Positions 1 through 41,936 of a DNA stretch of 64,000 bases are shown in pieces; the stretch's first letter is position 1; each line of letters begins with the position of its first letter. This stretch comes from Phytoseiulus persimilis. Its lineage: Eukaryota; Arthropoda; Arachnida; Mesostigmata; Phytoseiidae. The translations under genes were made by a program, and so were the position numbers. The notes beneath the pieces are model-generated. The model did no database searches and was not told the origin of the DNA. It saw only the letters and a list, made by a program, of their open reading frames with translations. Location: positions 10,292,001 to 10,356,000 of the forward strand of contig CM075101.1 of assembly GCA_037576195.1 (NCBI GenBank), written 5' to 3'.

Positions 1-2906
1 AATATGTGCTGTTGCACATCGCAGTGCAGTGTAGACCCAAGCTCTGAGCCGGGTTGTCAAACCAATGGAGGATTTTGTAGACACAGGTTCTCCGATCGCT
101 CCTGTTGAAGGTCTTCGGCAACTCTACCGGAGCACTCGTTGACATCTCTCAAAATCGGACTTTCGGTGAAAGTCGTCGATTTGAGACTCGAGGAGCATCG
201 GGATTTCGAGGCTGTATGATTCCAAGGTGAGCAACCGACCGGTCGCTCAATTATAACAATGAGAGCCAGGATCCCGAGAGCTTTGACCTGCAACGAATCG
301 TATGAAACAGCGGTTCTCAAACTCCACTGACCCATCGACCCCCTAGGCGACTTCGTTGAAGTTAATGGACTACCGTCTCCCAAGGGGTCGACCGTCGACC
401 CTTGATCCACCTACGTGGACGCCAAGAAGTATGGTCAAATCCACCCCGGCATCACCTCTGTAAACCGGAGATCGGCCATCGACCCCCAGGGGTCGATATC
501 GACCACTTTGAGAACCACTGCTCTAGAAGATAGGAAAGCGGGTGGAAACCAAGCGAAGAGCCCTTCTCTTCACTCGCCCAAGCTGAGATCGGATGGAATC
601 CTCGAAACATCTTTTTTCTTCGCTTTTATTCGCTCAGTCCCACAGTATACTCTATTTCGGTTCTTTATTCACTGAGTCTCTATTTTTTTTCGTCACAATA
701 ACGTCGGTTCTGCCGTGTTCCTGGATCATTATTACAATCATTGAATTCTTCATTTTCGTTCACAATATCATTCTCTACCTGAACATATCTTCTGCGAATC
801 TGGATGGATGAATGGAATCATGAAAAGTTGAACGGATGAGCTCGCATTGCGTATGATGAAATGGTTGAGTTCGAAATTCGCCCGATTTGAGAGAAACGAG
901 GACTCCATGAGGTGCTTTCCCGGTGCTTCTTTTGGGCGTGTACGAAGAGATCCTTGCCGGAGCAACAGGACACGAGAAACTCTCCTCCTAGATCACGTTG
1001 GGTTTCGAAGCCATCCTCGATCAAAAGCATTATTCACCACTGTACATGTTCCTATGGCACGCCCGCGCGTCTATCAGTCCACTGTATATTCACCGTCCGT
1101 GACATCGATTCAACCTTCGTCGTCTCCATCGGTTTGTCGTTCTCTTTCAAATCACAATCGTCCTCGAAGATTCCATAAGCAGTTCATTCCACTGAACATG
1201 GTCAAATCAAAGTTCGTTCCAATGTCGATGGTGGGACAGAGGGTTCAACAACGGCAGTTAATGAGAACACAACATCACAAAACAAAAGAAACCCGAGCGG
1301 GTCGATTCAAATATTCGCTGGAACAATGCTTGCACTCAACCAACACTCTGGCTGACTAGGGGGGAGGGAGGACAACGATTCCATCGGAAAATGCCGGAAG
1401 CAAGTTCCAGTAACACGCCGTCTCAAACATTCTTCTGTTTTCGGTGTCACCGGAACCTTCAATGGAACTATGGTTCGCGCGGAATCTCCTTCCGGGCGCG
1501 AGTGCGTTTGGGAAACCTCCGTACGCGATATGCATCGAAACCCACGGATGAGGGAGGGAAAGATCATCGAGAAGCTGAACGGTGGCCACCGAATCATAAG
1601 ATCATGAAAGCATTCGTCAATTCGGTATTTAGTTCGGCGCGCAACTCTCGGCTGGACACGGAAATTCCCGGAACGAACCGGGTCGCTCACTCGCGATAGA
1701 AACGTGAGTTCACGGACGGATGAGCAGGAGCGAAAGCACAGATGATTGAATAGCGTTCAAATATCCATCGAAACAGCCAAGTTCCAGAAGGAAGCGTTTT
1801 CCGGAAAAAATGGATTCGAGAATAGTTTGACTCCTTTGTAAGAGCGTAAAAACTCCCTGCTTCCGCCGCCACGTACTCAAGTAGCGCATCCTGAGAGCAG
1901 TTGGATGCTCCCTGGGAACCTCAGCACCGCATCCTACACGGGACCTGGGGCTCAATGGCGGAATCACGTGGCAATGCGCGCGGCCATGAGAGCGCAACCG
2001 ATCCGGTGCCCTCTGGTGTCGGCGCGGGCTCCATCAAAACGAGAGCACGGTGAGGAACAGAGAGTTCTGAGGAGCTCACCGCCGTCGACTTGGTAAAGAC
2101 TATGGATAGAAAGGACGGTTTGTAGAAAATGTAGGGCCTTGCTATAAATATCCTCGTGCACCTGATCACCCGTAATTATTTACAGGGGAATCGCGTGGAA
2201 AACTTCCCGCGTTCCAATTAGCTCCCAGACGTCGTTTGATATGTCATCGTCATGTGAGTGTTGGGAGGGCAATCGATTTCAAGGGTGCTTGTTGCTGTCA
2301 ACAGGAGTGCGATAAACAGCTGACGAGGCGACAATCTGACATTGTAAATCTGTGTATCGTGGCAGACGTTTTCATTCTTCGGTCGGTGACTTGGTTCTCG
2401 CTCCGATGGGTCCTCAGAGCTGGGACGCTTCCATTAACAAGTAGTTCTACATTACATGCGACGTTTTCGTCTCCACCTCTTGCAGCTCAACGCAGTCGCG
2501 GGCGTTTCCGATAGATTTCTCATTCCCACAATCGCCTCCTCCATCATGATCATATATTAGAATAGATAAGCGGGATATTCAATTCGAAGCTCCTTGTCGC
2601 ATCACGATCATCGTCCCGACCCGCGACGGGAGAGTTGCTCCGGTTGATTCGGGAAACGGGTCGCGTGGTTCAAGTGCAGTGAAACACAAGTGGCGGGGTC
2701 TATGGCATCGATTTCGCTTTCGGTATCCAGGAAGAGAACCGAGGGCATTCGGATCGAAGTTGGAGTTTCGGTTGCTTCCGGATGGTTTAACGTAGGTAGA
2801 AATGTTCCTCTCGGAACCCTGATTCCCAAGGTTCCGCCCGGAAGAGTCCGAATGAGTTGCGAAGTGCTCTTTCCCTTTGTTTGTCGTCTTGAACGAATGT
2901 AGTTAT
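1..2906. other. Gene-poor stretch downstream of cyclin Y
   Basis: Apart from the MITE at 308-520, nothing here is recognisable. An open frame at 847-1359 (plus, 170 codons) has no domain, no signal peptide and several open frames overlapping it on the other strand, so it is probably chance. The part next to 2907 should include the cyclin Y 3' UTR. Confidence 0.5.
308..520. mobile_element. hAT-type MITE
   Basis: A 213-bp non-coding unit bounded by inverted ends. The left end reads CAGCGGTTCTCAAACT and the reverse complement of the right end reads CAGTGGTTCTCAAAGT. The CAGNGGTTCTCAAA start is typical of hAT-superfamily terminal inverted repeats. The interior carries several GGTCGA/TCGACC palindromic pieces. 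The flanking octamers (GTATGAAA, CTCTAGAA) both fit the hAT target consensus nTnnnnAn but are not identical, so the insertion is old or the ends are off by a base. It cannot encode a transposase and would depend on one supplied in trans. Confidence 0.6.
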
Positions 2907-17815: not shown

Positions 17816-17822
17816 TATATAA
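17816..17822 (+). promoter_or_regulatory. TATA box of secreted-peptide gene
   Basis: TATATAA, 79 bp before the start codon at 17895. This predicts a transcription start near 17845-17853 and a short 5' UTR, the usual arrangement for strongly expressed secreted-product genes. Confidence 0.65.
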
Positions 17823-17894
17823 CCTAGCAAGGGATCAGGAAGGGAGTAAGCAGGCGAGCAAACCATATTTCAAATCAAAGCGCTCTCGATCAAC

Positions 17895-18699: not shown

Positions 18700-18749
18700 G
18701 GCATGGATTCGCGGGATCACGGTCAAGGGAGGAAGACGGTCAATGTTCT

Positions 18750-18755
18750 AATAAA
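18750..18755 (+). terminator. Polyadenylation signal of secreted-peptide gene
   Basis: AATAAA 51 bp after the stop codon of the fourth exon. Confidence 0.6.
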
Positions 18756-20600: not shown

Positions 20601-21760
20601 TCATAAACCCTCGCCGTTCCACCATAGATGCGGGGGAACCACTTGAGCAGAAATCGGCTGCGGGTTTTCAGGGGACTGAGACGCCCTGCCGAAAGACGGA
20701 GCACTTGTCTGTGTACAGGGACCCGACAGCGAGCCGGGGAATTTCGTGAAAGCCAGCATTTGGTTCAGTTTGAATTCTGAGCTCTCACCCAAGACACCAG
20801 AGGCGAAATATCCGTGACGAATCGCTGTTTGCGATGAAAAAGGATCCTCGGGCGAGTAAACAATCGGACTGACTGGTGGTGAGAGTTCGCCGGCTGATCC
20901 GAGACTACACCCAGTGGACAGAGGTTTGAAGCCGTTCGGGACAGGCATCGCTGGTGGGATCGGCATTTCAAGTGCGGGTCTTGGCCTGGGCATCAAGGAT
21001 TGCATCAAAGAGCTCGGCGGAAGTTTCCGGAAAGTGTCGCTCGAAGAATTCGAGAAATTAGCGCGGCGACCCCACTCGTTGCAAACAAGCTCCGCATACG
21101 CGTCGTTCCTCTGAGCATTGTTCATGTTGACGTCGGTGTAGTTGGGATTCGCTTGCATACCCAGAAGTTTCGAGGACGCCCCACCGCGGATCTCGTCCTG
21201 GTTATGGATGAAGTGGCAACGGTGGCCGTAGGGACAGAGGCCGTTCGAGTGGAACGTTCGGCACAGTTGACTCTTGTACTTGGGATGTCGCGCCAAGTTT
21301 CTGAGTTCGGCAACCCCATGCGCGAACTGACATCTCGCCCCATACTTGCAAACACCGTTCTCCTCGAACGGCCGGCACAGTTCGGTTTTGTAGCGAGAAC
21401 TGCGGTTGGTCACACCGTCAGCTGACGAATTTACGTTCTCACTTTCTGACTGACCGTCGTTACGACTGCGAAAGAATGAACGAGTCAGTGAGGGGTATAG
21501 GCCTTTCAATCTCATGGAAAGAGCCACTCTGCCTGACAGCTCTAGAATCAGCCGACATACCTGTTCTGAAGACGATGCAGTTGAAGGAGCTTAGCTCGGA
21601 TTTCGATCAAGCGTTCCCTGGACGTGTCAGGCGGCAGCATCGCTGAAAGCTCGTTGAGGTCCATTTGAACCAAGTTCGAGGCCGACTTCTGCAAAGCCAC
21701 TATCCGTTCCCGGAGTACGTTCACGTCCGTTTTGCTCGGGTTGCTGTGTGCGTCTGACAT
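20601..21760 (-). CDS. ZFP36: Tristetraprolin-family CCCH zinc-finger protein (ZFP36/TIS11)
   Basis: RNA-binding decay factor that recognises AU-rich elements and recruits deadenylases. Two exons (21760-21561 and 21465-20601) join in phase to give 354 residues. The tandem zinc fingers are C-x8-C-x5-C-x3-H at about residues 97-116 and 135-154, separated by 18 residues, each preceded by the diagnostic lead-in (RYKTEL, KYKSQL). Intact metal ligands and spacing identify the TTP family rather than other CCCH proteins. The rest is low-complexity and Ser/Pro-rich with [15 protein letters not shown], candidate phosphorylation/14-3-3 sites. Single intron before the finger exon, as in vertebrate and fly relatives. 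The gene symbol marks the family, not a specific paralogue. Confidence 0.93.
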
Positions 21761-24700: not shown

Positions 24701-27700
24701 AAGCAGCCGTTCTCGAATCCTTAAGATCTTGGAGTCCAACTGCGAAATCTATGGCTGCCTCGAAAGAAGTCTTAAAGACTCCACAACGATTCCGATGAAT
24801 TCTAGGCTGCCGCGTGTAAATGTTGTACACAACGTGGATGATAACCAGCTACGGAGTCACGGAAGTTCGGATTCTTTGACTTCAACGCCGATCCGACGGG
24901 AACTCTCGATGCTCATCTCGGAAGCAGGTTCTTCCACCAAGTCCGCTCTCAGATATAAGTTTCTGACTGCGTGGAAGCGTCCAGAGACGCGACCGATCTC
25001 GCCGACAACGCCAGATCTTCAACCGCGACCATCAACAGAATATGATCAAGACGAGAAGATGTCTGTTTATTTAGACGAAATTTCAAGAACAGCCCTCGAA
25101 TGTTCATCCCGTGGAGCGTGACGCTTTCCATAACAAGAACTACGAGACATGTTGCTCGAGCTAACGACCAGCACCAGCAGCACTCCAGTCATCTGCTGGC
25201 CTCGCTACAGTTCCAACCTGTCAACAGGCCGGCATGGAGATGAATGGATTCAACGGTACGCATTTCGCATATCTCTTCGCCGTGAAGGAGATCAACCGCC
25301 TGTTCGAAGCTGTGCGGATGATGTCAAACTTCTCGAACTTTCGGCGTGCCACATACGTCGTTCGAGATGGGCAGCTTTGGCCTCTGCCGGTTCGCTCAGA
25401 AACGTTTGACCTGTTGCTGCACGCAATAAACTTCCAGCCCCGTAGGAAGACGGAGTTCACGCACGGAGTGACTGGCCGAGAGTCCTCGATATCTAATCAT
25501 CACACAGAGAACTGAACGCGGAGTCTTATTTCGAGATTTGTCTGCCTGCCTCTTGGAGCGTCCAACACACTCGGCGTCGAGCGGTGATTACGGAGATATG
25601 ACTAGCTACATTTTTCTCTGCAGCTTTCCATGAACGATCGTTCGAGTTCCATGGGCGCTCTAAACGTCCACTCCACGTCGGTTTTGAAGACACCAATATT
25701 CGAGCACGTATGACTCGCAACAGCCGACTTTAGCAGTTTTGAATTCAGGAAGCTGATACCGGCCCACGGAACGTTTCTCGTGACATGCCCGGTCGCCGTC
25801 AGCAGGGAAAAATCGAACAAAGAATTCACTTGCTTGAAAATTTTCCATACAAGTCGATAAGGCACTTCCGTAATTTTCCCCGTCGCGGAAACGAGATGAC
25901 AGAAGGAACGCTTACCTGATTGATGTGACGACGATGTTCGGCGATGCTTTCAGTTCTGGCGGCGACAGAACTGCCAAAATCGAGCCGCGTCAACGGTCGC
26001 GATGGAAAAGAGCGCAATCCGTGTAGCCGCTCGTTCGATCGGCCGATCGGTCGTTGAATTAGTGCTTGGGAAGTTGGCGGGCGTTCTCTGAACTGAAAAC
26101 GATAATGAAGACTCCGGAAATCAGTCAGCGGCGTATTACCGACCTCCAAATGAACTCCACGTACTTCACTTCCTCAAAGCAGCACAAAACTAAGAACACA
26201 CGTCAAACAGATCCCTGTGGGCGTCCAGTAATTCGATCGCCGTGGGGCTGTACAGGCAGGCAAGCGGGCGAGCGCGCGCGAACCTGCTCTCCCTGCTTTC
26301 GGGTAGCGGCTTTCGAAACAGAATGGGAAGCACGTAGTGCACGTTTTGTGCGTGCGTCCCAACGTTGATTTTTGGTGCTGGCGAAGGCCCGACCGAGAGT
26401 CCACGAAGTCTTTCCAACAGATTCTAGTGAGCGTCGTCTGAGAGTGGTTTTATGGTGGCACCGGCATTCTCGGGATCCTCGTAGTGCGCCGCGAACGTTC
26501 CACTCAGGGGTATTGTGTCGAATGTGGTGTATTGTCTCCTGCCATCGAAAGCAGCACCATCCTCCAGCTCCAGCACGGCGACCACAAGCAGCACCACTTT
26601 CCGCGCGTCGCCGGCCACTAGGAGAGGGCTACTCAATGCTCTTCTCTATCATCTACCGAAACAACAGCAACGGCCTCACAAAGCTGGTACGAACAGTAGC
26701 GGGGACGTCGAGAGCAGCGGCACTCTCAGCGGTATCAGCAGTATTGGATGAAGTTGACAATTAGAATATGGGCCGTTCCGTCGGAACCTCTTCTTTCCAA
26801 GCGTAATTTCTCTCGCGACAACAAGTTGTTCGAGCATCTCCTTTGACTTAGCATGAGTGCACTCATATGTTCTGGGGGCAGGCCAAGGTTTCATTTCAGT
26901 GAGACATTCAAAGATAGCGGAAAGTTTGCGGCTGGCATGCGTGACTGAGCAAACGCCCGTCCGACGGCGGAAGGTTCCTAATAGATTGAGTTTTGTGCGA
27001 TTCAGCGCGAACCATTTTCTGGAGCACTTGGATGGGATTCGAATATTCCTCCGATTCGGATCCGCAAAACATCCGATTTGAACAACCCGAGGGTCTCTTG
27101 AAAATGGAGGATTTGGAGCTCAAGTTCCGTATCGGTAGTCCTCAGTCGTCTGGCCAACGAGCCGGGGTAGGTTGCAGAGAGTGGGGCGTGTGTTGAACGA
27201 GACGGGGAAACCCTTTCTCCCACTCTCTCCTCTCGAAGAATAATTCGTAAAAACTCTCCCAACGCTCCAACGAGTTCAGGTTCTACTTCGCTGTCTAGAC
27301 AGACGATGCCATCGCCGAGTTCGTCTGTCGATTTGTCCCTTCGCCAATTCGCGTGTCTGGGTTCCGCTCTGAAGTGTACATCTGCAGCTTCCCCTTGATC
27401 AACATTTCGGCCCACCGTCATCTTCAACTTTTCGCCAATATACGCTGGCAATGTATACCTCCCGAGCACTCCCAGCGGAACTTGAGAACCTGCAAAATCA
27501 CGGGAGCACCATCTCTGATACGGGCGACAAGGAATCAGATTTGGAGGATAGCCAATTCTCCTGGTTCCGTAAAATGTATCTTCGGAGTATGTCCCGTCCT
27601 CCGTCTCAGAACATCCTTCTATCGGAGAATAGTCATCGCAACTGATACCTCCGGCAACCTCTCACTCGGTCGTGATGAAGAATACTTGATAGCGATTCAA

Positions 27701-28716
27701 TTGGGGTTATCTCTCTGAAGACGGAGGTTTTGCGAGAAGAAACGATATGCAAATCGGACGATTTTTATTGTACGCTGAGAGTAATCCAGTCCAGAGCGGT
27801 TCTATACAGTGGGCTCTGTTAGTCTTGAAGGATTCTCGAATCAAAATATAGTTCTTTCGATACACTGCTAGATTCCCATTCCCTGAGGGCCGAATTCCTC
27901 CCGTCAGTATTTGGATTTGAGCGATTACCAATGTTGGAGTCGTAAAGCCCCGCGCTCCTCCTAGCGCCCAGTTTTGAAAACATACGGTTCCGTGTGATTT
28001 TAAATTCGATTCTAGCTCCAAGGTTGATCCTCGACATTCTAGAATCCAGCGATTGAGGATCAAAGTCTCGACGAAAGTCGTTTTCAATTTCCGCCCAGAG
28101 CCACGATGTCCGCTTTTCGGTGTGCAACGATTTTTTCTCGCGCAAATTTCTCAAATTGCTTGCTCTCTAATGCCAGGTATATAAATTGTCTCAGCGAGGG
28201 AACTGTAGTTGGCACACGGAATTCGGGCGAGCACATCAAACTTGGACTCGGAAAGCGCTCCGACGAGCTCCAATGAGTCTCCCAGCAAGGTTGGGTTTCC
28301 ATCGCTTGGTCCAAGTCGGAAGCTGTTGCCGAAAATCCGAAATATCAGGTTTTCGGGGGGATTCAAAAATTTCCCGCCTAAAATTTGCGAATAAGCCAGA
28401 AATTTTCCTCTATCAGCCGAGATCTGGTCGGTGTATCATAGTCATGGGAAATCTCTCTGTGCGCGCGAGTGCGTTTTATGCTACTTCTCCGAGTTCCATA
28501 TGCGAATACTATTGGACAGATTTTATGCTCGAAGATTCAACTGTAACGATGAGCTTCAACGGCGTGACAAGTAACACTCCCTCGACCGGGTTCGGGGTCT
28601 CGGTAGGTTATCTCTTCAAGGGTTCCGGTTCGTCACGCAAAACTGGGATGTTACAGCGTATCCTACAACAAGAGTTTGCTTGGTTGCGATTGTTTCTCCG
28701 CGTGAGGGCGCGTCGT
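21761..28716. other. 7-kb stretch without recognised genes
   Basis: Long open frames occur (22258-23127 minus, 21851-22375 minus, 24015-24425 plus, 24654-25121 plus, 27002-27469 minus) but none shows a known domain and most overlap other open frames. The best candidate exon is 24654-25121, listed separately. The segment next to 21760 should contain the promoter and 5' UTR of the tristetraprolin gene. I see no repeats. Confidence 0.45.
24654..25121 (+). CDS. Unassigned open frame, possible exon
   Basis: 155 codons without a stop, Ser/Arg/Glu/Pro-rich, with a stretch ALRYKFLTAWKRPETRP followed by PISPTTPDLQPRPS and an acidic end. Composition is more protein-like than its antisense frames, but there is no family match I can name and no firm splice partners. 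It may be part of a disordered regulatory protein or may be chance. Confidence 0.2.
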   Translation: MKTPSLESPLNCVRSESSRSRILKILESNCEIYGCLERSLKDSTTIPMNSRLPRVNVVHNVDDNQLRSHGSSDSLTSTPIRRELSMLISEAGSSTKSALRYKFLTAWKRPETRPISPTTPDLQPRPSTEYDQDEKMSVYLDEISRTALECSSRGA

Positions 28717-30717
28717 CTAAGTCTGTTCAATCACTTCGAGCAAATCGCTATCTACGCCGAGTCTCTCTAGTTCCTCCCGAACGACTTCTCCGGTATTGAG
28801 GTTCTCGGAGGGCTTTTCATCGACGTCGGGTAGCGGGATTTCCACATCGGGCTCTTCCTCAACAGTTTCCTCCTGAACTTCCACGTTGCTCTCGTCGTAC
28901 TGAGCGGCTTCTCCCTCAGGTTCTAAATTTGCCTCCTCTCGCTCGACGACATTCTCTTCGGCTTCGTCAGCTTGCACATCAGGCTGCTCGAGAGCTTCGC
29001 ATACCCTCACAATTTGGGCACCTGCCATAATGAAATGAGTACAGTCAGAGCTCTGGGTTATGCTGTGATTTCAAGTTTCTTCGAACACAGCATTTGTGAA
29101 CAACTGGGTAAGCCCGGGACTCACCTTTTTCGAAGGTTTCTGCAGCCGTCTCCATATCGACCATGGCAAGCTTGCAGATCGCCTTGGTAATGGCCTCAGG
29201 ACAGAAAACCTCGAAAGCGTATTTGATCGTGTCCAACCCTTCAACTTCTTCAACTTCCTTAGAACGTTCAACCAGCTCGTGGCAGTACTCATAAATGGCT
29301 TCCTGCGCCGGGAAGTCGGGTTAGAATCGCAAGTTTCTGCAGTGTTTCGGCTCGTTCGTCTCCCTCCACAATTTCTGGACCTACCTGCTGCAGCTGATCG
29401 TCGATCGGACCCCACCAGGAACTCTCTTTGAGCTTCTGACGAAGTTCATCGTCTTCGCTCGTGTAGTGGTCATGCCTCCGAGACGGAACGGTTCCTCGGT
29501 ATATACCGACAAGATGGGCTTCTACTTTACCCTCGGTAATGAACTCCACCAGCGCTTGATTGGAAGTTCTGCGCAGATCTTTCGAGCGCTTTACCCAAGT
29601 TAGCCTTGCGGCGACCCTTGAAAAAGACGAAGAATTCAGGTTGGCGCCACCTCACGTTCCTACACGCGAAGAATAGTTCGTTGCGGATCAACGATTCCCC
29701 TTCAGCAGAACCGAACACCTGGCTCCCAAAATGACTTACGTTTTGCTTTCGGCTGCTGGAAGATCTTCGGTCGTGGCCAATTCCCAACGTGGTCCTTCCA
29801 CGAGCTCGTCTGGCACTTCGTCATCTTCGGAGGAAGAGCTCTCATGCTCTTGAATGAGCTTCGTTTCGCCGAGGCAGAAAAATCGCACTGGATCGATGTT
29901 GACACCCAAAACTCTCTCACGCAGGAACTTGTCCGCTTTCTGGGCAGCTCGAGCGTGCTCCGTAGCCAATGCGGCCTTCTGCTTTTGACCGCCTTCAAGG
30001 AATTCTTTCCGGTTCGGCGAGTCGAAGTTTTCCACCTTGTTGGACTGCACGGTGACCTTGGTCTATGGGAGAAGTCTGTGTCACTGTAACCGACCTCCCG
30101 AGCCTCGCCCGTTAATCATATCAAGAGAGCAGGGTGATAGTGATTCTACTCACGCCGTTGTGAATGAGGAAAACGCGCATCTGAATCGTATTGGTCCTGG
30201 CTTTGCCTCGGAGGCCACGGTTCAGGATCTGGCAGGAGAGGGATGAATTCGTGAGAGTTATTCTCTCACAACCAAAGAGAGGACGGAGGGTGGATTCGGC
30301 GCCGCCATTTCCCTACCCGATCTGCGGACGCGCACCAACCTTGAGAACGAGCCCGGGCCAATAGACGTTCTGGCCGTGTTTTATCCAGACAACATCGTGA
30401 CGTTTTATTCCAAGTCTCTCCCCAAGAGTTTCATCCTCTTCGTCAGATTCTTCGTCTTCTGAACTGAGCTGAGGTTCGAATGACTTCTGTAATGAGGGTC
30501 GGGTTTCCGCTTAGGTGCATGATGTAGTCGGGAAAAAGACCTGGTTTAACGCCCGTGTGGGGCCGGGACCATATTTTCCTCTTACCGTTGAGGCTGCTTC
30601 GACAGCGTTCGATGGTCCAGGTTGAGGAGAATTTTCCTTCAATTCGCTAACTTCGGATCTCAGCTCGATTCCGACCTCGTTCTTGGGTTTCGTCGTTTTC
30701 TTTTTCTTCGATGTTGC
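28717..30717 (-). CDS. PWWP3A: PWWP-domain chromatin protein, PWWP3A/MUM1-like (5' end missing)
   Basis: Seven in-phase exons: 30717-30586, 30486-30340, 30228-30154, 30062-29740, 29568-29385, 29302-29125, 29021-28717, covering the last 447 residues. A basic lead (SKKKKTTKPK) precedes an acidic patch and a PWWP domain (HDVVWIKHGQNVYWPGLVLK, with YWPG in the PWWP position). The C-terminal third, with CPEAITKAICKLAMVDMETA, matches the conserved tail of the MUM1/EXPAND1 family (PEAIIYAI in the human protein). The last ~100 residues are strongly acidic. In vertebrates the protein binds nucleosomes and 53BP1 and loosens chromatin at breaks. The first exon in my model starts in phase 0 at an acceptor with an upstream in-frame stop, so at least one 5' exon lies upstream and was not found. 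Family assignment is good, orthologue level tentative. Confidence 0.75.
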
Positions 30718-32049
30718 CTGGAAGAGCAGGAGAATAACTTTGGTATTGTATTTTCGTCTCTATGAACCGAGCTCGTCTCCTTTCATAGCATGCCGAAAGC
30801 GGATATCGTTCAACGCGAAATGACTTCCATTTGTCGGCCTTTCAAACGCCCGTTCGTCTACCTCACGGACAGTCGACAGCAAGTCTTTTCAGCGCTAGCG
30901 CCTGGAAATTCTCGCGGTGACCGGAATTCATAGATTCGTGATTTCATTCGCCACTGAGAAGGATGCGGAATTGATTCCAGAGAACTTGCCCGCGTGTCGC
31001 GAAAAGGAGCTGCGTCACGCCCAGGCTCAGACGCTCGAAAAGTTCGCTCACTTGAACTCATTATACAAAAAATGGATCTAGAAATGGATGACCGAACGCT
31101 TCTTCAACGAATGAATTGTCCACGGTTCCGATTGATACAATACTTTTATTGTTTAACTGATTGAATCTACAGCCGCTACACACTGGTTGACGAACGTGGT
31201 CTGCGATTCCTGAGGTTTTCCAAAAGAGAACAGGAGTCGGCTCCCGAATGTCTCTTCCGCCGAAGGGGGCCGTATACTCTAGAACCCCATGCGAGAGCCG
31301 ATGCAGCGAGCTGAGGAGACTTATCGCCCTCCCAGACAGCATGATCACTTCCAAATTCGTGTTCTGACAGGTGCGGAAAATCACAATGTGGAAGGCCGAG
31401 GCAGTAGAGTCGATCAATCACACCGAGCGGACATGTGGAGCCGTAACACTCCCAGGAGGCAAATGCAAAAAACTCAAACCTTCCGTGTGTGCATAACCCA
31501 AATGTCGAAACCCTGGATGAGATGTTTTCTTACAACAGCTGGAGCAATGTCGGGAGAGAAAAAATTAACTACGTCAAGATGATCTGGAAACGTGGGCGAA
31601 GGAAACACACATCAGAAGCGGAGACGACGGACAGGATGCAAGACCGAAACTGAGGAGGGCGGTGTCAGCTTGAGCTCAATGCGGCAAACTCAGCGAGTGA
31701 GAACAAGTTGAGAACGTCGCGTCATGCTGATCGCAAGTTCACGCCTGTGTGATAGAGCCGACGAAAACGCCGGGCGATTCGCGCAACATGGATTCGCACG
31801 GCCGCAGCCAGGCAGATAGAGGCGGAGGATCGGCGGTCTCATGTGTCTGGATGAGGACGAGCAACACATAACGGTAGCGTTGAGCGTCTCGCTTAGAAAT
31901 GGCGGCGCCCAAGGAGGGAGGATGGTGGTGTTGTCCAATCAATGACTCCGGATGGATGCACGATTGACACAAGCATGCTTCCAGGCACATTTGGATAGAG
32001 ACGCGCGGTCACGTGGAGAGGCATCACCAGCCGAGGTGACACGTCACAG
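30718..32049. other. Upstream of PWWP3A-like gene
   Basis: Should hold the missing first exon and promoter of the PWWP gene. A 67-codon minus-strand frame ending at a GT at about 30860 does not join in phase to the exon at 30717. Nothing else recognised up to the hairpin cluster. Confidence 0.4.
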
Positions 32050-32110
32050 TGACACTTATAGCACGCACACGCAATGCCACCGGTAAGCTTGTGCAATGCA
32101 TAAAGCGTCA
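32050..32110 (-). ncRNA. miR-210-like hairpin 1
   Basis: On the minus strand this folds into a stem of about 24 pairs with one A-G mismatch, one bulged U and a small central internal loop. The 3' arm contains GTGTGCGTGCTATAAGTG, whose positions 2-8 (TGTGCGT) equal the miR-210 seed. The 5' arm contains CATTGCACAAGC. An outer G-U pair on the minus strand would be a C-A mismatch on the plus strand. Confidence 0.7.
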
Positions 32111-32255
32111 GCGCAAGAGTCTACGTTGAAAAACCTCTACCACGCCAGTTTCAAGTTCGCTCTCGCATGAGTATGTCGGACCTCAAGTGTCAATTGGAGG
32201 TCCTCATACATGAAAGTTGTCGCCAGTCAGTTCGCAACCGCGGTTAGTTGAAATA

Positions 32256-32336
32256 AAGCGACACAGCGACACTTAAGGCACGCACACGCAGTATCATAAT
32301 AAGCCTGTGCAATGCTTAAAGCGTGGTGTATCGCTT
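32256..32336 (-). ncRNA. miR-210-like hairpin 2 with pri-miRNA basal stem
   Basis: Same architecture as hairpin 1 (3' arm GTGTGCGTGCCTTAAGTG, 5' arm CATTGCACAGGC) plus a lower stem of about 11 pairs outside the pre-miRNA (56-67 pairing with 25-36, last two digits), the length a Drosha/DGCR8 substrate needs. Two C-A mismatches of the plus strand become G-U pairs on the minus strand, which favours minus-strand transcription. Confidence 0.75.
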
Positions 32337-32765
32337 GAATTCATTAAGAAAAACGTCTGATCAAAACAGTGTCAAAACTCATGGAAAATGAATTCGGTCA
32401 CCAAACGGCGAAGGAGGAAGAGAAGCTATGATTCAGCGAACCGAGCGATGCGTGAGCATTGGGCTCATGATAATGGGCCGAGTGTAACGATATTTGCACA
32501 GAGAGCGGCTTTCAGAAGATTTCGGATCCAGCCACCAAGGAACATTGTGATATCACTTCGGGGAGGGGAGGTCGCTGTCAGTGAGGAGCATTCGTTGGAA
32601 TCGGCGGACAGCCTCGGAACACGTGAGAGATTTCCGCTCAGCTACGAATTATCGTAGGATAGAGCTGAATACATATAGGACGGTGAAAGAGCACGGATTT
32701 TAAATTCGCATTCAGCGCAGTTCAGCATGGTCTACCCATTCCAAACAATTACTCGCCGAAATGTG

Positions 32766-32844
32766 CGATACAGTTCCACCTTAAGACACGCACACGCAGT
32801 TTAGAAGTTCAAGCTTGTGCAATGCTTAGGGCGGTAGCGTATCG
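32766..32844 (-). ncRNA. miR-210-like hairpin 3 with basal stem
   Basis: 3' arm GTGTGCGTGTCTTAAGGTGG; 5' arm CATTGCACAAGC. The middle stem differs from its sisters, yet both arms have changed together (GGTGG on one side, CCGCC on the other). A six-pair CGATAC/GTATCG helix continues below a small internal loop. Confidence 0.72.
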
Positions 32845-33206
32845 TAGAAGCATGCTGGTTAGAGATCAAGAAGAGAGACAAAACGTGAAAACAGCGGTGC
32901 GGTGAAGCGAGGCGACCAATCAGTGTACGGAGGTGGAACGTGCCATCAGTGCGGTGCAAACAAATGTCCCGTCTTCATCTGCTTGCGAGCGGCTGACCGT
33001 TTGAATATGATATTCAGATCGTAGTTCTCCGTCGGAGCTCACAGTAAGGCAGCGAAGTCACGATGTGGGCTAGCGTGCTTGGGGACGGCGACATACATTG
33101 GAATAACCGCCAACGCTATCAGACGGATATGAGGTACAACATGCTTTGTGAGTGCCAGTCATTCCGAGTTTTTTTTTGTTAGTGTGATAGTTTCAACTGC
33201 CACAGA

Positions 33207-33265
33207 GACACTTATAGCACGCACACGCAACTCTGATGGAAAGCTTGTGCAATGCCGTAAGCGTC
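33207..33265 (-). ncRNA. miR-210-like hairpin 4
   Basis: The best-paired copy: on the minus strand 20-plus pairs with one A-G mismatch, one C-A mismatch and one bulged U. The 3' arm is GTGTGCGTGCTATAAGTG, identical to copy 1, while the 5' arm has changed to retain pairing. Confidence 0.75.
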
Positions 33266-33662
33266 GCCGTACCGCCTTTTGTAAACTGAACCACCTGCAC
33301 GACCAGAGACCACAACCGAGGGAGTACACAGGGGTTCACGCGATACGGTTCCGCTTACGCGTCACCATAGCATGCAGAACGTGGTGGAACTTGCCACACA
33401 GGCTCAAGTTCACCGTTAATAGATTAAAGTCTCAAATATAACGGAGCTGTAGCTTCCCAGGAGTTTCATTCTGACAGAGAACTTATTTGACGCCAGGTCT
33501 CATGCGGAGTCCGCCGTCCGTCGGGTCCGTTATATGCGAGACTCACGGGTTAGAATTTCTTTGTATGAGATTATGACAGAACTTCGGCACGACTTCATGC
33601 ACAGGCGAGGACGGCGTCGTTGCTTCGCCTGAAAATGTTCCCAATGATGGAGGAGCGCCACA

Positions 33663-33727
33663 CTTTCACGCTTGTCACACGCACACGCACCTTGCGACGA
33701 GCTTGTGCCATGTGTGAAGCGTGAGAG
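33663..33727 (-). ncRNA. mir-210: miR-210 hairpin (copy 5, closest to canonical)
   Basis: The minus-strand 3' arm (33669-33686) reads GTGTGCGTGTGACAAGCG. Bases 2-14, TGTGCGTGTGACA, equal positions 2-14 of bilaterian miR-210-3p, which continues GCGG. The 5' arm reads CATGGCACAAGC. The basal stem CTTTCACGCTT/AAGCGTGAGAG is nearly perfect. Relative to the sister hairpins both arms have changed in step (TGTGAC on one arm, CACACA on the other), which is covariation. Confidence 0.82.
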
Positions 33728-33887
33728 TATCGACGTGTTGGTGAATGTGGGAGTTTTTCTCCAGGTATTAGGGGCGACGCAACACAGAGCAGGGAAAGTT
33801 CTTGGACCTTGATCAGCATGAACTACTCAAAACGTACTAAAGGTGATTCAGCCCACGCTCGATTTGTTGATCCGAAACAGCCCAATT

Positions 33888-33943
33888 ACGATTTATGCCA
33901 CGCACACGCTCATTATTGAAGGCTTGTGCAATGGATAAATCGT
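33888..33943 (-). ncRNA. miR-210-like hairpin 6
   Basis: 3' arm GTGTGCGTGGCATAAATCG, 5' arm CATTGCACAAGC; about 20 pairs including a nine-pair ACGATTTAT helix at the base. The seed is preserved, while the 3' part of the arm differs from all other copies with compensating changes opposite. Confidence 0.72.
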
Positions 33944-36007
33944 CACCGAGCCGCTCTCAGGGCATCGAGCAGGTTTCGGAAAGCCCCATGCACTTCTATG
34001 AGAGTTATCCTCAGTAGACGATCACTCAACAGAAAAGTTAGACAAAGAACGACCATTTGAGAATACGAGGAACCCAGTGAGCTTGCGACGACCTCGGTCC
34101 CTCATGAGGAGATGCATTAGCCCACTCGGTCGAGAAGCTCCTCGACTCCTCGCAACGCATTCGACTCCGGAAGAACCTACGTATCCGACATCGGAATGTA
34201 CTCAAGTATCCATGCCCGAGTTCAACAACGAGAATCGAGAAGACTCTCGGTTGCTCCGTTACTAGATATTTCGTTGAAGCGAGGACACATTCAACATGTT
34301 CCTGTTGAATGTCAGAACGGATGAATGGATGGATGAATGGCGGACGACTCTCAGCTACGCGAAAACGCGGTCACACGTTCCCAGGAGCGGCGAATGACGA
34401 ATCCAGCTACTTCAAAGCGCCCACCCGAGTGAATCTCCCGATGTCCAGCTGCTGCTAAAATTAGAAGTTCCAGGGAATAAGTCTCGCGAAGTTGCGCGAG
34501 ACTCCTCTAGGAGCTTCCGAAGCCCGGGAGCGGTTCCCAGGAGCGCATTGAGGGAGGGCTTGCTGCCGTATCGAGGTCGTAGTGCTGCTGCAACAGGTTT
34601 TAGATGCGCACGCAGATCCCGTGCCGCCATGTTAAAATACGGCATTCTACTTCGCGCTTTGCGAAAAACGTAATAACGTTTTCGGATCGAGGAAGACTTC
34701 GCTCATAATAGGAATCTGCGAGAACCAAAACGCTCGGCCCGAGCAAGGGAGGAGTGGGGAGAGCCTGTCCTCTTCGCTCGGTAGCACTTGTGGATGTCTG
34801 CGCTCATAAGCACTCCAAGTTCACAGAGGATTCGATTCGCATTCTGTGACCTACGCCAGCGAACACTGGAACAAGCAGCTGAACGGCAGGGAACATAGAG
34901 AGCCACGGTCCGAATGGAGATTGGACCAGAGGGATCCCTGATAGGTCCTCGAGTTGCACACACGGACTTGATGGTCAAAAAAAGAGATGTGTGTACAGAA
35001 CTTCCACAGTTCTCTCATGTTACTCGTGAAGGCCGATTAGGACCGGAACTCCAGGTCGGAGCAGTCGGCTCAAATCGCCGAGCCACTCAGATCTTACTTC
35101 ACCCGTCAGCCGAAAGGAGCCTGGAATCCTCCAAGGGAACATCTTGGGGAACATTCGCGCACCGGACATCACGTCGAGCTTTCGAAGGAGTCGAGGGGTA
35201 TATCGCAGGTTTCCTCGGGGAACACATGGCCGCATATAGGAGCTCGATGTGTCCGACTACAGGGACATCCCGAAGTTGAACCTCGGGCCCCGACGTCTCC
35301 GTGGGACTTTCAAAGCACCCATCTCTTCGCAACTCTCCGAATGCGACAGGACACCGGAGCGCAGGAGTCGAGTCGAGTTCCACCGCGGAAACGAGCGCCG
35401 ATTCAGTTCTAACAGAGCGAGCCAAACTAGAGCACAGGCGAGAACTTGGAGCACAGACGAACCGCAATCGGACTCGTACCCTATACGACTGTCGGAGCAG
35501 CAACTGGTCAACTGAACACGAAGGGCCGGATCCCACACACGCTGCACTCTCGCTCAAGCTTCCAGCGGATTGAGCCCCGCGATAGCTTTTCTTATCCAAT
35601 GCCTGAGCCGGGTCATGAGAATCCTAAGCGATTCGGCGAGCAGACGATCCGAAATTTTGGATTGCAACAACCAGGACAGCCAAGTTCATTTTCCGAACAG
35701 CTACAAAGGGAAAATTGATCGAAATCGATTCTGTGGAAAAGCCCTCGCGCTTCTTTTGACAGCGTCCCCGCTAAAGGCCTCCCGGTGAAAGCGGCGCTGT
35801 CGCCGTACCTTCACCAAAAAGCCTCTGGGATCATTCAACATCATCAGCTGTTGTATGTGTGTAGTGCCTCCCTATATGTGAGTAAAGGAGCACCGCGGCT
35901 GCGCCTAAATCAATCCAGTTCCGATAAACAACCGTGTCCGCCTGAAACTCAAGTTCCGCCCCCAACTAACGAAGGAAAATCTGCGTCCGACGCCAGGAAA
36001 AGCCTCC
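33944..36007. other. Intergenic, nothing recognised
   Basis: Several overlapping open frames on both strands (for example 35099-35599 minus, 35249-35573 plus) with no domain. A short GATGAATG-type simple repeat sits near 34320-34345. The miRNA primary transcript promoter could lie in this interval if transcription is from the minus strand. Confidence 0.4.
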
Positions 36008-37024
<1,017 letters not shown>

Positions 37025-38045
37025 GTGGTCCGTCGTCGTCCTCGTTCGTATTTCGACTCACGTCTTTTACCAGCGCTGATCAACCGGAACAACTGAGAAG
37101 TTCAAACTCAAATATTCGACATCACATGCAGCAGTAGCGGCACGAGTACTTTTCCGACCGGAGGTCTCTGTCCGATCTGTTCACTCCCGAATCTCATTAC
37201 TCGTGTACTGAGCTCAAAGCTATTCCGAATATCTCTTATCTGATTTGAACTCAACGGGCGGATGTTCCACGATCGGCCTGGGACATCCGACGCGACTCTG
37301 GTGATCAACTGAATAACTAATATACTGACGCGATTCCCGATTGCGAACATTCTCAGACCGTTGCGGCTTTTTCATGTTATGTTGATTTCTGTATAAGTTC
37401 TTGTCAAGTGCTGTCGACAGCTCCTTTGCTAGTTTTATAGATATGAACGCATTTGAACTGAGTTTTCTCGCGTAGAGACGTTTCTCGTCGTTACCAGTGT
37501 TAAGTTATACAGACGCGCGAAAACTAGGAATATTCAAAGAGCTATGTTTCACGCCGTTATCGAATGGGTGCAGTGAACGAAACGTCCGTCTTGGAAATTC
37601 TATCCTTCTATGTATTTTAGTTTGAGCTGGATACCAACTTCAGCGCCTCGCGGAAGGAACTTCTCGACCGACTCCCGTCTTTGTCAGCCAGAAGCTTCCG
37701 CGCCGAAACTCAGACCTGACATGGATACGAAAGTGATCGCAAACTACGATCCGATCGACCCAGTCCGAGGATCGCGATTTGAAGTTGTCTTTCAACCTTC
37801 TCTCCAGGGAAACGATAGTAATTAGTCGAATCTCATGTGGGTTTGAGCTAATTCACCGATCCAAGGTAACAAAGTTGACTCTCGAACGGGGTGGTGCGCA
37901 CAGGATGTGGCAACAGAGTAATATTTCGGAATAAACAAATCTTGCAAAATCTACCACTCGCTGTTTTACATGAGATAATACACACCGGTATCCTCCCTGG
38001 CTGACACGAGGATCCATTTTTCACTCGCGCTCTTCTCCAAAAACT
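37025..38045. other. Intergenic, nothing secure
   Basis: A plus-strand open frame at 37610-37825 begins just before a plausible acceptor but has no partner exons or domain. No repeats seen. Confidence 0.4.
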
Positions 38046-38234
38046 CATGCCACATGCAGAGCCTGGAACATTGAATGACGAAAGACTTACCTCGAACAGA
38101 CTATCCTCATTCCATGAGAAGAAATCTTTGTTGAAAACACAGTCTTTGGTTTGGTGGCGGATCATGTTGTTGATACGACTTGAGGTGAATTGGCACTTGT
38201 CGCAAGTGTAGTCGCATCCACCCTTGTCGGCCAT
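38046..38234 (-). CDS. Possible single zinc-finger mini-protein or alternative 3' exons
   Basis: An exon starting at a well-placed ATG (GACATGGCC context) encodes MADKGGCDYTCDKCQF and continues to a C-x2-C-x12-H-x4-C finger, ends at a good GTAAGT donor near 38092, and could splice to an acceptor near 38063 for a five-codon end (ALHVA, stop). That intron would be too short, so a different partner is likelier. The exon sits just downstream of, and on the same strand as, the AT-hook gene, so it may be an alternative terminal exon of it; the phases do not match the last exon I model. Low confidence. Confidence 0.3.
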
Positions 38235-38359
38235 GTCTACTCCGAAGGTGTCTTGAGGACTGGAGAGAAACAGCAACGGATCGTTATACCTGAGTCATCT
38301 GGTTTACCCTTTTCTCGACGGTTTTCCCAAATCTCGTCGAGTCTCAGTGACATTCCAGA

Positions 38360-40105
38360 CTACTTCCTTCCGAGAAATTCATTATCAACGAGCTTCACGT
38401 TCTTGAATGGCATGCTGCTCTCACGGAATAAGAATTTACAGTGTTCGACCGGGGTGGTCTTCAATTCTGGGAGCGGCGCGAAACGTTTTATGATCGCTTG
38501 AGAAGGTCTAGGCGGGTCCTGTATTATTTCCAGGACAGGCAGAGCCTGAAGTCTGTGCACGTAAGGCCTCTTCTGTTTTGCGGTTTCTCCGTAGATAACT
38601 GCAAGCGAATTGATGATTGAATCATCCTCTGACATTCACTCAACTCGAGTCACCTTCACGGAGTACACGCTGGGATGGGGCTAGATATGCCTTCACAAGT
38701 CCGAGCCTCCGAGGGTTGATCTCATATGCTGATCGATAGATTCAATGGTGCCAGGGCGAAAATGCTCCTGGGAAGGCGTTGGCAACCACTATCTGCTTCC
38801 GCCGTGTACAACGGGACTCACATCTTATTTGTTTCCGCCAGGTTTTGGTTGTGCCGATGGCTTTGAGCCGGCGATCCAAATCAGCACGTTGGTCCTTCGT
38901 GAGCCCGTCGCCTTCGTCGTTTTCATCATCTTCGTCATCAAGGAAATCTTCGTAAATTTTCACATGACGTTCCCGGGTTGATCGTCGGATCTGAAGCGCG
39001 ATATAGAATCCATTAGATTGCTCCTCCTCATCGGATAAACTGTCTCACATAACCAATTATTCGTATCGAATCTCAAATTTCTCTCAAGTTTTTTCCCCGG
39101 ATTCGATGAGACTCTAAGAGCGAGATCGAAGGCAAGAGTCGAAAGATCGCAGCGCACCTTGCTTCCGCCTGCAGACTTCCTTGACTTCTTATTGGGCTTC
39201 TGAGCTTCGATACTCTCTCGCGATTTTTTTCGGCCGACCCCGTTTCTTCCCGGCGCTATCAGGTTTTGGGCTGTTCTTTTCCGGTGAAGTGTTCAGCGTC
39301 ACCTGAAAACCACAATGATGCGTCAGCTGATCATCAAGTTCATATGCGGAGTCTCTCCGTGCTAGATGGGCGTTGAGCACAGGGAGATACGCAGACCGCC
39401 TGTGACGCAGACACACAGGACAAACTCACCTGTGAGACTTCCATCACATCTCCACGGTCGTCCTCAGAATTTGGAGCGGCATCCTCATCCGATGTATCCG
39501 GTCGGCTCGAGTCCTTGACCATTATCAATACTGGTTGTACCTCTTCTTCATCGTCTTCGTCCATAGCCGAATCACCGCCTACCGGTGCTGCAAGAATGAA
39601 CAGTAGGCTCATTTATGATTATGGTAGTTTCTCCTGTCCCTCTGGTCCTTGGCTGTTGAACATCACGACCAACAGGGAATAAACATGGAGAGGTCATTGA
39701 TTCGAATGCGTCCGCGTTTTCCGAGGGAGCGAGAATCAATGAAACGCGTATCAAGCTCAAGGAATGTGCTTCGACAGAACTTCCGGTGCTCGCATCGACG
39801 TAAGCGCTCAATGGAGTGTTCCGCATCAAAGCATAGCCGCACGGAGTCTGCGTTGAAAACCACCATTTGTTCCAGAGATTCACTTCTGTATCCAATGATT
39901 GTTTCACGTTGCACTGCTCCAACATAAACATAGTCGGGCCCGACTGAGCATGAAGGCGGGAGAACGTCAGACAGATTCCATATTGGAGCTCACCTTTGGT
40001 TCCTATTTCGATTTCATCTTCAAGCCGGCTGACGTCGACCATGCCTTCATGGACGAGGCTGCTCCCTACCTCGGTACTATCCTGGGAAATTCTGGTTGCG
40101 GCCAT
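38360..40105 (-). CDS. AT-hook, acidic nuclear protein with apparent frameshift
   Basis: Five exons: 40105-39994, 39587-39430, 39302-39158, 38990-38822, 38598-38360, about 273 residues. After a short N-terminus comes an acidic region (MDEDDEEEVQPV), an AT-hook (KKRGRPKK) with further basic clusters, a second acidic patch (DFLDDEDDENDEGDG) and a conserved-looking C-terminal domain (RPYVHRLQALPVLEIIQDPP). No named family recognised; it is probably a chromatin-associated factor. In exon 3 the frame is broken at a run of seven T on the plus strand (39224-39230): as written it stops soon after, whereas one base fewer restores a basic stretch and the phase-0 junction to exon 4. So the exon as given is one base too long. 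Confidence 0.65.
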
Positions 40106-41936
40106 CCTGAAAGAGGGCAAGGGCATCCTTGATTCCCAACGCCAAACGACGATGACGAGGAGGACAACGAGCTGAGACACCGGATTCCCCTCCGGTACGA
40201 CCAACAGGGTCTATCCAACTGCAGCGCCCTCCACTTGTCGGTACCCTCCTCCGTCTCTTCCTCCGGCAAAAGCACGGCTTCCCACCGAGAGCACTGCCGA
40301 GCTTCTTATTCCGGCCGGCTGCCCGCCCACCAACCAGCCGCCCCGACAGAAAGACAACCTGAAGCGTACTCCGTTACGGCTGCACTGGTTTCGTGAAGTA
40401 CTAGTCGAACGTTTCTAGTGTCACACATGATTCCTCCGATCCTCGAGCGCGCGCATTAATCAGAACGGGTTCACTCACATGAAACTTGCCGTCCAGAGAG
40501 CCCAGCAGTTTCCTTCGAGAAAGTCAACGTCGGTCTTCGGTAGTTGAAGCACGGTGTTGAACGGCTAATTGTCACTTGTGCCAAAGGCCGGGAAGCTGGT
40601 CAAAAAGGGCAGACCGATAACAATGCTCGCACTTATTTCCTCTGCGGACGGGCGCTTCGAGGAATCAGCTAAACAAAGAGAGAAGACCGTTTTGTTGGGA
40701 ATCCGGTGTCGGGCACTTCTTCTGTTTTTGTCAAAGAATTGTACCAAGGACCGGTGAATGCTCAGGTGCAAGCTTCTCTGGGGGATTTCAGACACAGGCC
40801 TCCTAATTCGCCCAATGTTCCTCGGGAGGAGCTGCGGACGACCCAACGACGGGTTCTCAGTAAACCGGGGAAAAAAGAATGCGAAACTATAGCAAGGGTT
40901 ATTATTGGAACAGCCAGCGAACGAGCGGTAGTAGCAGCACCGCGGTTGCTAGAGCGCGTCGAATGGATGCATCCTGAGAGCAATGGATCACGGGCGACTG
41001 ACAGTGCCTTGGGAATCGCTGATGGGTTCGGCCTTCGCCCCGGGAACGAGCCGAATCTCAACCATCCCCGTTTTGTAGATCATCTCCATCTTCGTTCTTC
41101 AGAATGCATATACAGAATGCTTGCAGCCTTGGCTGCGCTAACTCAGAACTCCGGGCGACCCATCGAGACAAGCGTTCTTCCTTGCCCACTTTTATTTGTC
41201 GCAAGGCCTCGCGTCAAAATCTGAGAGATTATGGACTATCGATCCATTCCGATCGCCCGCTCCTTTCACAAGACCTCTTGAGCCTTTCGAAATGCATTTC
41301 AAAATAAGAATCGTAAGCGCGGAGTCTGGCAGTGTAGATAAAAACAAGAGGTCGGTTATGAAACATCGGCTCGCAATGACAAGGGCGTTGGTGATTCAGT
41401 TACAGTATGCTCGAAGAATCGAGTTCAGTGTTCTTTGCGTTCGGCCAGGATGTGCGGGTTGTGTAAGATCCAGTGGAAGAGCAGCCGCACATCCGTTCCA
41501 CGCCGAACTCATGGTCGCGAACGATATCCCCTCAATCCGCCGTCCATCTTCCGAGCATTCGATATGGAAAAATCGCGAGGAACAGGCTAGTAACAGGATC
41601 GACGACGCGATAGTAGCTCCGATATACACTTCCAGCCGCCCACGAGCTATGCCATCCAACTATAGAGATGAGGTACACAGAGGAGGGCATTTTTGCTTGT
41701 TCCTTAGCTCTCCAAACACGCGGTTTCCGATCTGATCTTCGAGGAGGGATTTGATCAACTGCTTCTGCAATTCAGATCACTTCTCACTGGCCACGGAAAA
41801 CATCTCTGGAAGAGTCATCCGAGTCCAAAAGTCAGACCAGCGCCTCAGTAGCGATAAGACAACAACTCGGGGGTACCATTCGGCTATCGGATCGTTTGGA
41901 TTCGTGCCGGGCAAATTCATGTGAATGTTTCAGGTG

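What the first reader, a model, noticed from the sequence alone, without database searches (positions are those of the whole stretch)
32050..33943. Six-copy cluster of miR-210-seed hairpins
Six hairpins within 1.9 kb share GCGTGTGCGTG on the 3' arm and (except copy 5) CATTGCACAAGC or a near variant on the 5' arm, when read on the minus strand. The shared 3' arm contains TGTGCGT, the miR-210 seed. Outside the seed the copies diverge, but paired positions change together. miR-210 is usually one gene per genome in bilaterians, so a local expansion with fixed seed and varied 3' ends would be a lineage-specific microRNA family. Sequence shows the hairpins, shared seed and covariation; the miR-210 identity rests on the known mature sequence; expression is inferred.
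Basis: partly seen in the sequence, partly recalled or inferred. Interest (0 to 1): 0.88.

Follow-up and report, generated by a model that had tools for sequence, protein, structure and literature searches.

The report
Two clusters of miR-210-seed microRNA hairpins
A predatory mite's genome carries six microRNA-like hairpins in this window, and five more on another chromosome-sized contig, that all keep the eight-letter targeting core of the ancient microRNA miR-210 while the rest of the small RNA has changed; it looks like a new, expanded microRNA family, but expression has not been shown.

Summary
In detail: six minus-strand hairpins at 32.04-33.96 kb share GCGTGTGCGTG on the 3' arm (0.01 expected by shuffling). 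The source is a phytoseiid mite (OST48 84% identical to Galendromus occidentalis). Pattern searches of the 181-Mb assembly showed no third cluster and no canonical mir-210 core within one mismatch; divergent copies could be missed. Hairpin cores are alike in 55 of 55 pairs, flanks in 5 of 110. The 3' 8-mer is invariant in 11 of 11 copies, its 5'-arm partners at 3 of 8 columns, which points to the 3p strand as guide. A processing motif not used to find them, CNNC 16-18 nt after the predicted Drosha cut, is present in 10 of 11 (background 0.19). Best reading: a real, lineage-specific microRNA family with the miR-210 seed, probably descended from mir-210. Rfam's mir-210 is the best family for all six window copies, but at 17-28 bits against a gathering score of 50, so descent is likely and unproven. 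No small-RNA data were available.

The parts
32036..32124 (-). hairpin c1; predicted 3p 32049-32070 GUGUGCGUGCUAUAAGUGUCAC; CNNC starts 16 nt after its 3' end
   Evidence: Rfam mir-210 17.2 bits when scanned alone, not listed in the 2.2-kb scan
32253..32340 (-). hairpin c2; predicted 3p 32266-32287 GUGUGCGUGCCUUAAGUGUCGC; CNNC at +16
   Evidence: (mir-210 27.8 bits)
32761..32850 (-). hairpin c3; predicted 3p 32774-32795 GUGUGCGUGUCUUAAGGUGGAA; CNNC at +16
   Evidence: (25.5 bits)
33192..33280 (-). hairpin c4; predicted 3p 33205-33226 GUGUGCGUGCUAUAAGUGUCUC; no CNNC at +16..18 (the one miss of 11)
   Evidence: (28.4 bits)
33652..33738 (-). hairpin c5; predicted 3p 33665-33686 GUGUGCGUGUGACAAGCGUGAA, the copy closest to the mir-210 consensus after the seed; CNNC at +16
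   Evidence: (20.2 bits)
33873..33959 (-). hairpin c6; predicted 3p 33886-33907 GUGUGCGUGGCAUAAAUCGUAA; CNNC at +17
   Evidence: (27.6 bits)

Best explanation
The six hairpins are microRNA genes, probably made from one minus-strand primary transcript, and belong with five further hairpins on another chromosome-sized contig to one expanded family in this phytoseiid mite. Drosha and Dicer would release a duplex whose 3p strand, G-UGUGCGU-G..., is loaded as guide; the members then present the miR-210 seed (positions 2-8 UGUGCGU) and would repress mRNAs with ACGCACA sites, while the diverged 3' halves would tune extra pairing or stability. The family most likely arose by tandem duplication of an ancestral mir-210, of which copy c5 keeps most outside the seed. 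Shown: hairpins, constant 8-mer, arm asymmetry, CNNC position, unrelated flanks, two clusters. Inferred: transcription, processing, the exact 5' end, loading, targets, and descent from mir-210. The confidence given is for the microRNA reading with the miR-210 seed; descent from mir-210, disputed by the first rival, I put at about 0.65 given that reading.
For: In 11 of 11 hairpins 15-19 of the first 20 nt of the predicted 3p are paired, 14-20 nt lie between the arms and 9-15 bp follow below the cut; z -1.6 to -6.8. TGTGCGTG is invariant in 11 of 11, its eight 5'-arm partner columns at only 3, with 92.6% of upper-helix cells paired. Cells with changes on both sides 16 against 7.0 in shuffles, 0 of 500 reach it; 87.2% of cells paired against at most 58.8% when the partner is slid by 1-3 columns. 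CNNC at +16..18 in 10 of 11; no non-overlapping three-position window above 4 of 11; background 0.188, binomial 5e-7 if copies were independent; the position agrees with PMC9905709 (passages). Cores similar in 55 of 55 pairs, flanks in 5 of 110 at a 95% shuffle threshold. Rfam mir-210 is the best family for six of six window copies.
Against: No expression data. mir-210 scores are below the gathering score. In the second cluster only hairpin B is listed as mir-210 (16.3 bits, E 3.3), A is listed as mir-147 (20.1 bits, E 0.12-0.76), and C, D, E match no microRNA family at E up to 10. On the 11-copy alignment the number of pairs with changes on both sides (4) is no more than in shuffles (3.6; 285 of 500) and is 7 when the partner is slid by +1. 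c1 is not unusually stable, c4 lacks CNNC, c3 folds better on the plus strand. Paralogues are not independent, so the CNNC probability is too small by an unknown amount.
Confidence: 0.82

Rival explanations
1. A microRNA family that is not descended from mir-210: hairpins born in mites that reached the same seed by convergence, as vertebrate mir-147 shares UGUGCG with mir-210. It shares the microRNA reading and disputes only descent.
For: Scores below the Rfam gathering score; ten of eleven copies match the consensus at only 2-4 of 12 positions after the 8-mer; hairpin A is listed as mir-147; miR-147b and miR-210 are described as sharing only the hexamer seed UGUGCG (PMC3441733, passages).
Against: Six of six window copies have mir-210 as best family; the 5' arm CA-xx-GCACAAG of cluster 1 fits the Rfam consensus CAccGCACAag; c5 continues TGTGCGTG with TGACA as the consensus does; no mir-210 core within one mismatch was found in this genome.
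Confidence: 0.3
2. A hairpin-forming transposable element (MITE) or other dispersed repeat.
For: Short inverted repeats in many similar copies; copies on two contigs.
Against: The eleven known copies lie in two tight same-strand clusters; the other 74 of 83 GCGTGTGCGTG sites are scattered, and no other place in that list has two same-strand sites within 10 kb. Two whole hairpins used as DNA queries find only themselves and one cluster mate (the search is insensitive, as it misses the other cluster mates). Loops and flanks are unrelated.
Confidence: 0.04
3. Clustered hairpins with another role: cis-regulatory inverted repeats, binding sites, or a structured long RNA cut by Drosha without making microRNAs.
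For: No small-RNA evidence here; the palindromic core could be a protein-binding site.
Against: Arm asymmetry, hairpin geometry and CNNC spacing fit microRNA processing; a DNA palindrome has no reason to keep one strand's G-U pairs, yet the minus strand folds better in 10 of 11.
Confidence: 0.08
4. Chance or a GT-rich simple repeat.
For: The core is a GT/GC alternation.
Against: 0.01 expected, 6 seen; the letters beside the core are not a repeat; stems of 25-33 bp, adding the pairs within the 3p and below the cut.
Confidence: 0.005

Closest known systems
mir-210 (Rfam RF00679)
   Same: UGUGCGUG on the 3' arm, 5' arm CA-xx-GCACAAG with an unpaired base, hairpin of about 90 nt; that its mature strand starts one base before UGUGCGUG is recalled
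   Different: Eleven copies in two clusters (human miR-210 is called the only member of its family in PMC3441733, passages; one gene per animal genome is recalled); 17-28 bits in the window, below the gathering score of 50; 3' half of the mature RNA changed, least in c5
mir-147 (Rfam RF00693)
   Same: 3' arm GUGUGCG; hairpin A of the second cluster scores 20.1 bits
   Different: The consensus reads GUGUGCGG, here GUGUGCGU; vertebrate family (recalled); far below its gathering score of 57
Tandemly expanded microRNA families of chelicerates: mir-3791 (34 copies in Parasteatoda, 13 within 50 kb) and mir-71/mir-2 (PMC4987109; sections 11 and 14 read)
   Same: Same kind of event: local duplication of one microRNA
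   Different: Other families. That paper surveyed Metaseiulus occidentalis and Varroa; its main text names no mir-210 (0 occurrences; the single '210' appears to be part of a PubMed id in the references). Its figure 2 and supplements were not seen

Membership tests
animal microRNA gene | Hairpin with extensive pairing of the mature arm and a loop of 8 nt or more (criterion recalled) | tested here: met
   11 of 11; 15-19 of 20 nt paired, 14-20 nt between the arms
animal microRNA gene | Small-RNA reads from both arms with fixed 5' ends and 2-nt 3' overhangs | not testable with these tools
   no reads held
animal microRNA gene | Sequence conservation centred on the seed of one arm | tested here: met
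   TGTGCGTG invariant in 11 of 11 paralogues; partner columns 3 of 8. Among paralogues, not between species; several searches selected on this 8-mer, but hairpins B-E were reached by the model, the scan or neighbourhood
animal microRNA gene | CNNC 16-18 nt from the 3' Drosha cut (common, not obligatory) | tested here: met
   10 of 11; position as in PMC9905709; cut site assumed from a 22-nt 3p
mir-210 | Rfam RF00679 at or above 50 bits | tested here: not met
   best 28.4 bits; none at gathering in the window
mir-210 | Seed UGUGCGU on the 3' arm | tested here: met
   11 of 11, if the 5' end is where mir-210's is
mir-210 | Conserved 3' half of the mature strand (Rfam consensus) | tested here: not met
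   7 of 12 for c5, 2-4 of 12 for ten others
mir-210 | Orthology by position or intermediates in related species | not testable with these tools
   no related mite genomes held for this window (one search states none)
mir-147 | Rfam RF00693 at or above 57 bits | tested here: not met
   20.1 bits for A only

The most novel reading that the evidence does not exclude
In phytoseiid mites the usually single, deeply conserved mir-210 gene has been replaced by an eleven-gene, two-cluster family that holds the 8-mer UGUGCGUG constant and lets the 3' half and the passenger arm drift: a natural series that shows which part of miR-210 selection keeps, with no canonical copy left in the genome.
Probability: 0.5. 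Interest if true: 0.72.

Novelty: new variant of a known kind. Interest (0 to 1): 0.62.

Why it matters
miR-210 is described as one of the most conserved microRNAs (PMC11468086, start of abstract in the listing) and acts in photoreceptors and clock neurons of flies (PMC6343102, PMC6062148, starts of abstracts in the same listing). An animal that multiplied it while freeing nearly everything but the seed would give a direct test of seed-only function and of what 3' supplementary pairing adds. Phytoseiid mites are, as recalled, eyeless, so an expansion in them would ask what the seed does outside vision.

Tried and rejected
Rfam RF00679 over the whole own genome gave 0 matches at E up to 10, but it scored 52 of 12127 candidates and missed the window's own copies, so it is no evidence of absence. 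The core TGTGCGTGTGACAGCGGC with up to 3 mismatches gave 120 matches against 133 for the reversed control; none had fewer than 2 mismatches; the seven with 2 were not matched by models R2 or R3.

Model R1 was built with the structure string out of register and was not used; R2 and R3 replaced it. MAFFT misplaced gaps in the lower stem of the long alignment A1; trimmed slices (A2, A3) were used, and even there two pairing registers of the lower stem are mixed, so the counts for helix 1 understate pairing.

Other pattern matches were followed and dropped. Of 26 matches to TGCACAN{12,26}TGTGCGTG (control 6), 5 lie in the window; 18 of the other 21 were fetched as 401-base regions and folded, and only one, hairpin A, is a long hairpin, judged by eye. 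The remaining three have the same letters within the pattern as two of the fetched ones. Of 18 matches to CATTGCACAN{10,28}GTGCG (control 6), 5 are in the window, 1 is hairpin A, and 12 do not form a long hairpin (by eye); R2 on those 12 loci and hairpin A's locus matched only the latter. Of 11 matches to TGTGCGTGNNATAA (control 7), 3 are in the window, 4 in the second cluster and 4 are not hairpins (by eye). GCGCARGCN{8,26}GTGTGCG gave 14 (control 20): two are hairpins B and C; the loci of the other 12 gave R3 at most 12.0 bits. TGTGCGTGNNNNAA gave 252 (control 218), of which 100 are listed and none of the new ones was cut out. The pattern CACTGCACAN{10,28}GTGCG did not complete. Divergent solo copies may therefore exist.

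Literature: of ten searches, looked for miR-210 or for microRNAs of mites, ticks and phytoseiids; no listed title deals with a miR-210 cluster or a phytoseiid microRNA catalogue. What was listed: 20 of 36, 20 of 949, 20 of 27, 1 of 1, 15 of 7114, 10 of 2011 and 1 of 1 papers; the library lacks most subscription journals. This is weak evidence of novelty.

Full report
What the window is. The window lies at C1:10292001-10356000 of an assembly of 180,977,233 bases in 127 contigs. The ORF at 14090-15184 (+) encodes OST48. Of 1425 proteins found, the best 120 were listed; the first is Galendromus occidentalis at 84% identity, the next named one Tropilaelaps at 63%. The source is therefore a phytoseiid mite related to, but probably not, that species (inference).

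Observation. The shared 3'-arm 11-mer occurs six times, all on the minus strand, where 0.01 are expected. Each copy folds into a hairpin; one copy (c1) is not exceptional in energy. In the alignment of the six cores, 4 of 19 pairs carry changes on both sides against 1.7 in shuffles; three of these four are in the lower stem. No Rfam family reaches its gathering score in the window. With an E-value threshold on 31.9-34.1 kb, mir-210 takes the five best places, 20.2-28.4 bits, E 0.00055-0.18; the sixth copy, c1, was not listed there and, scanned alone in 161 bases, scores 17.2 bits, E 0.12, again with mir-210 as the best family.

A second cluster. A pattern made of the two arms led to a hairpin on contig C2, and the covariance model of the six window copies (R2) then matched four places within 2 kb around it, at 31.6, 20.0, 19.4 and 17.5 bits. 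A hairpin scan showed the fifth (also a hit of the pattern). In locus L064 (C2:48440000-48449900, minus strand) they are A 8858-8949, B 7910-8001, C 7278-7369, D 6978-7069, E 6742-6833, with -35.8 to -44.8 kcal/mol and z -4.1 to -6.8. The neighbouring 9.9 kb (L065) and 9.9 kb on each side of the window (L066, L067) hold no further R2 match at E up to 10. All five bear TGTGCGTG on the 3' arm; three continue AGATAATCCTAA, one AGATAATCCCAG and one GTTCAATCCCTT.

Genome-wide limits. GCGTGTGCGTG occurs 83 times (reversed control 69); 6 are in the window, 3 in the second cluster, and no other place in the list has two same-strand copies within 10 kb. Hairpins c5 and c4 as DNA queries find only themselves, and c4 also c1; that search misses the other cluster mates, so it excludes close copies only. 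A model R3 of all eleven, run on 57 sources (window and loci), gives its eleven members 48-66 bits by construction; the next are 19.7 (plus strand of c6) and 13.5 bits.

Why microRNAs. First, geometry: with the 3p starting one base before TGTGCGTG, as recalled for mir-210, and 22 nt long, 15-19 of its first 20 nt are paired, 14-20 nt lie between the arms, and 9-15 bp follow below the cut, in 11 of 11. Second, asymmetry: TGTGCGTG is invariant in all eleven, its partners on the 5' arm at 3 of 8 columns; cluster 1 has CAT(T/G)GCACA, cluster 2 has GACGCGCA or AACGCGCA in B, C, E, CATTGCACA in A and CATGTCACA in D. Pairing is largely kept (upper helix 92.6% of cells). That is what is expected if the 3p strand is the guide; the comparison is weakened because some searches selected on the 8-mer. 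Third, an independent signal: CNNC starting 16-18 nt after the predicted cut is present in 10 of 11 copies (c4 misses); the best non-overlapping three-position window has 4 of 11; background is 0.188 (0.180 and 0.201 in the two local regions), binomial 5e-7, 0.0012 for the window's six alone (5 of 6) and 0.0002 for the second cluster (5 of 5), all assuming independence, which paralogues break. The position was recalled before counting and then checked in PMC9905709, passages read. Fourth, the DNA around the hairpins: local alignment scores exceed the 95% shuffle threshold in 55 of 55 core pairs, but in 2 of 55 upstream and 3 of 55 downstream 70-nt flank pairs, which is what chance gives. The copies are therefore old relative to neutral decay, or only the hairpin was copied; in either case structure and seed have been kept.

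Covariation over eleven. Cells with changes on both sides are 16 against 7.0 in shuffles (0 of 500) and the covariation score 0.293 against 0.134 (0 of 500); but the number of pairs with such changes, 4, equals the shuffled mean of 3.6, and sliding the partner by +1 gives 7 pairs and 14 cells. So covariation is supporting, not decisive; the percentage of paired cells (87.2 against at most 58.8 when slid) is the stronger figure, though the structure was derived from these sequences.

Why mir-210, and how sure. The seed, the arm, the 5'-arm motif and the unpaired base agree with the Rfam consensus. As a partial control, 17 chance loci that contain TGCACA...TGTGCGTG, scanned together with hairpin A's locus (18 loci, 7218 bases), gave no mir-210 match at E up to 1; but hairpin A gave none there either, most of these loci are not hairpins, and a score like that of c1 would not have been listed in so much sequence. 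c5 matches the consensus at 7 of 12 positions after the 8-mer, the rest at 2-4 of 12. No sequence within one mismatch of the canonical 18-base core was found in the assembly. Against it: sub-threshold scores, the absence of mir-210 matches for A, C, D and E, and hairpin A's match to mir-147, which shares the hexamer UGUGCG. I put descent from mir-210 at about 0.65 given that these are microRNAs.

How it would work. Inferred, not shown: co-transcription of each cluster, Drosha and Dicer processing, loading of the 3p strand and repression through ACGCACA sites. Eleven genes with one seed would raise dose or allow separate expression of the clusters; the diverged 3' halves could divide targets.

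Known parallels. In chelicerates tandem growth of one microRNA family is known: mir-3791 has 34 copies in the spider Parasteatoda, 13 within 50 kb (PMC4987109, section 14 read). The same paper surveyed Metaseiulus occidentalis and Varroa (passage), but its counts by family are in a figure that is not held. PMC8136511 (passages) says mir-210 had been reported in spiders and scorpions. The kind of event is known; this family was not met in the searches listed under Tried and rejected.

Noticed in passing
L064:6742-8949 (G000 C2, about 48.4467-48.4489 Mb), minus strand: Second cluster of five hairpins with TGTGCGTG on the 3' arm; treated in the report as part of the same family.
   Followed up: yes
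G000 C1:8713482, C2:4951926, C2:5654185, C2:7003015, C4:826575: Five places with the identical TGCACAAATCAGTGATCATCTGTATTGTGCGTG on three contigs; not a long hairpin in the two that were folded.
   Followed up: partly
window 53138-54470 and 54635-54759: Tandem array of a 45-base unit (29.6 and 2.8 copies) open in several frames; one frame reads WRGDSGANLSISFQL repeats.
   Followed up: no
window 56428-59844, minus strand: Two long ORFs (708 and 429 aa) that look like a non-LTR retroelement; an FADD motif is visible in the first (label by eye, no family search).
   Followed up: no
window 35753-35844 (-) and 34445-34536 (+): Two strong single hairpins (-42.1 and -41.0 kcal/mol) near the cluster without the shared 8-mer; inverted repeats or other microRNA candidates.
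   Followed up: no
window 2910-21590 and 24609-41732: Ordinary genes by Pfam in the first stretch: cyclin, Exo84 pieces, ABC ATPase, OST48, CCCH zinc finger. In the second, around the cluster, 8 of 8 ORFs match no Pfam family at E up to 0.1 and the three ORFs there have none or weak sub-cutoff matches, so the host or neighbour genes of the cluster are unknown.
   Followed up: partly
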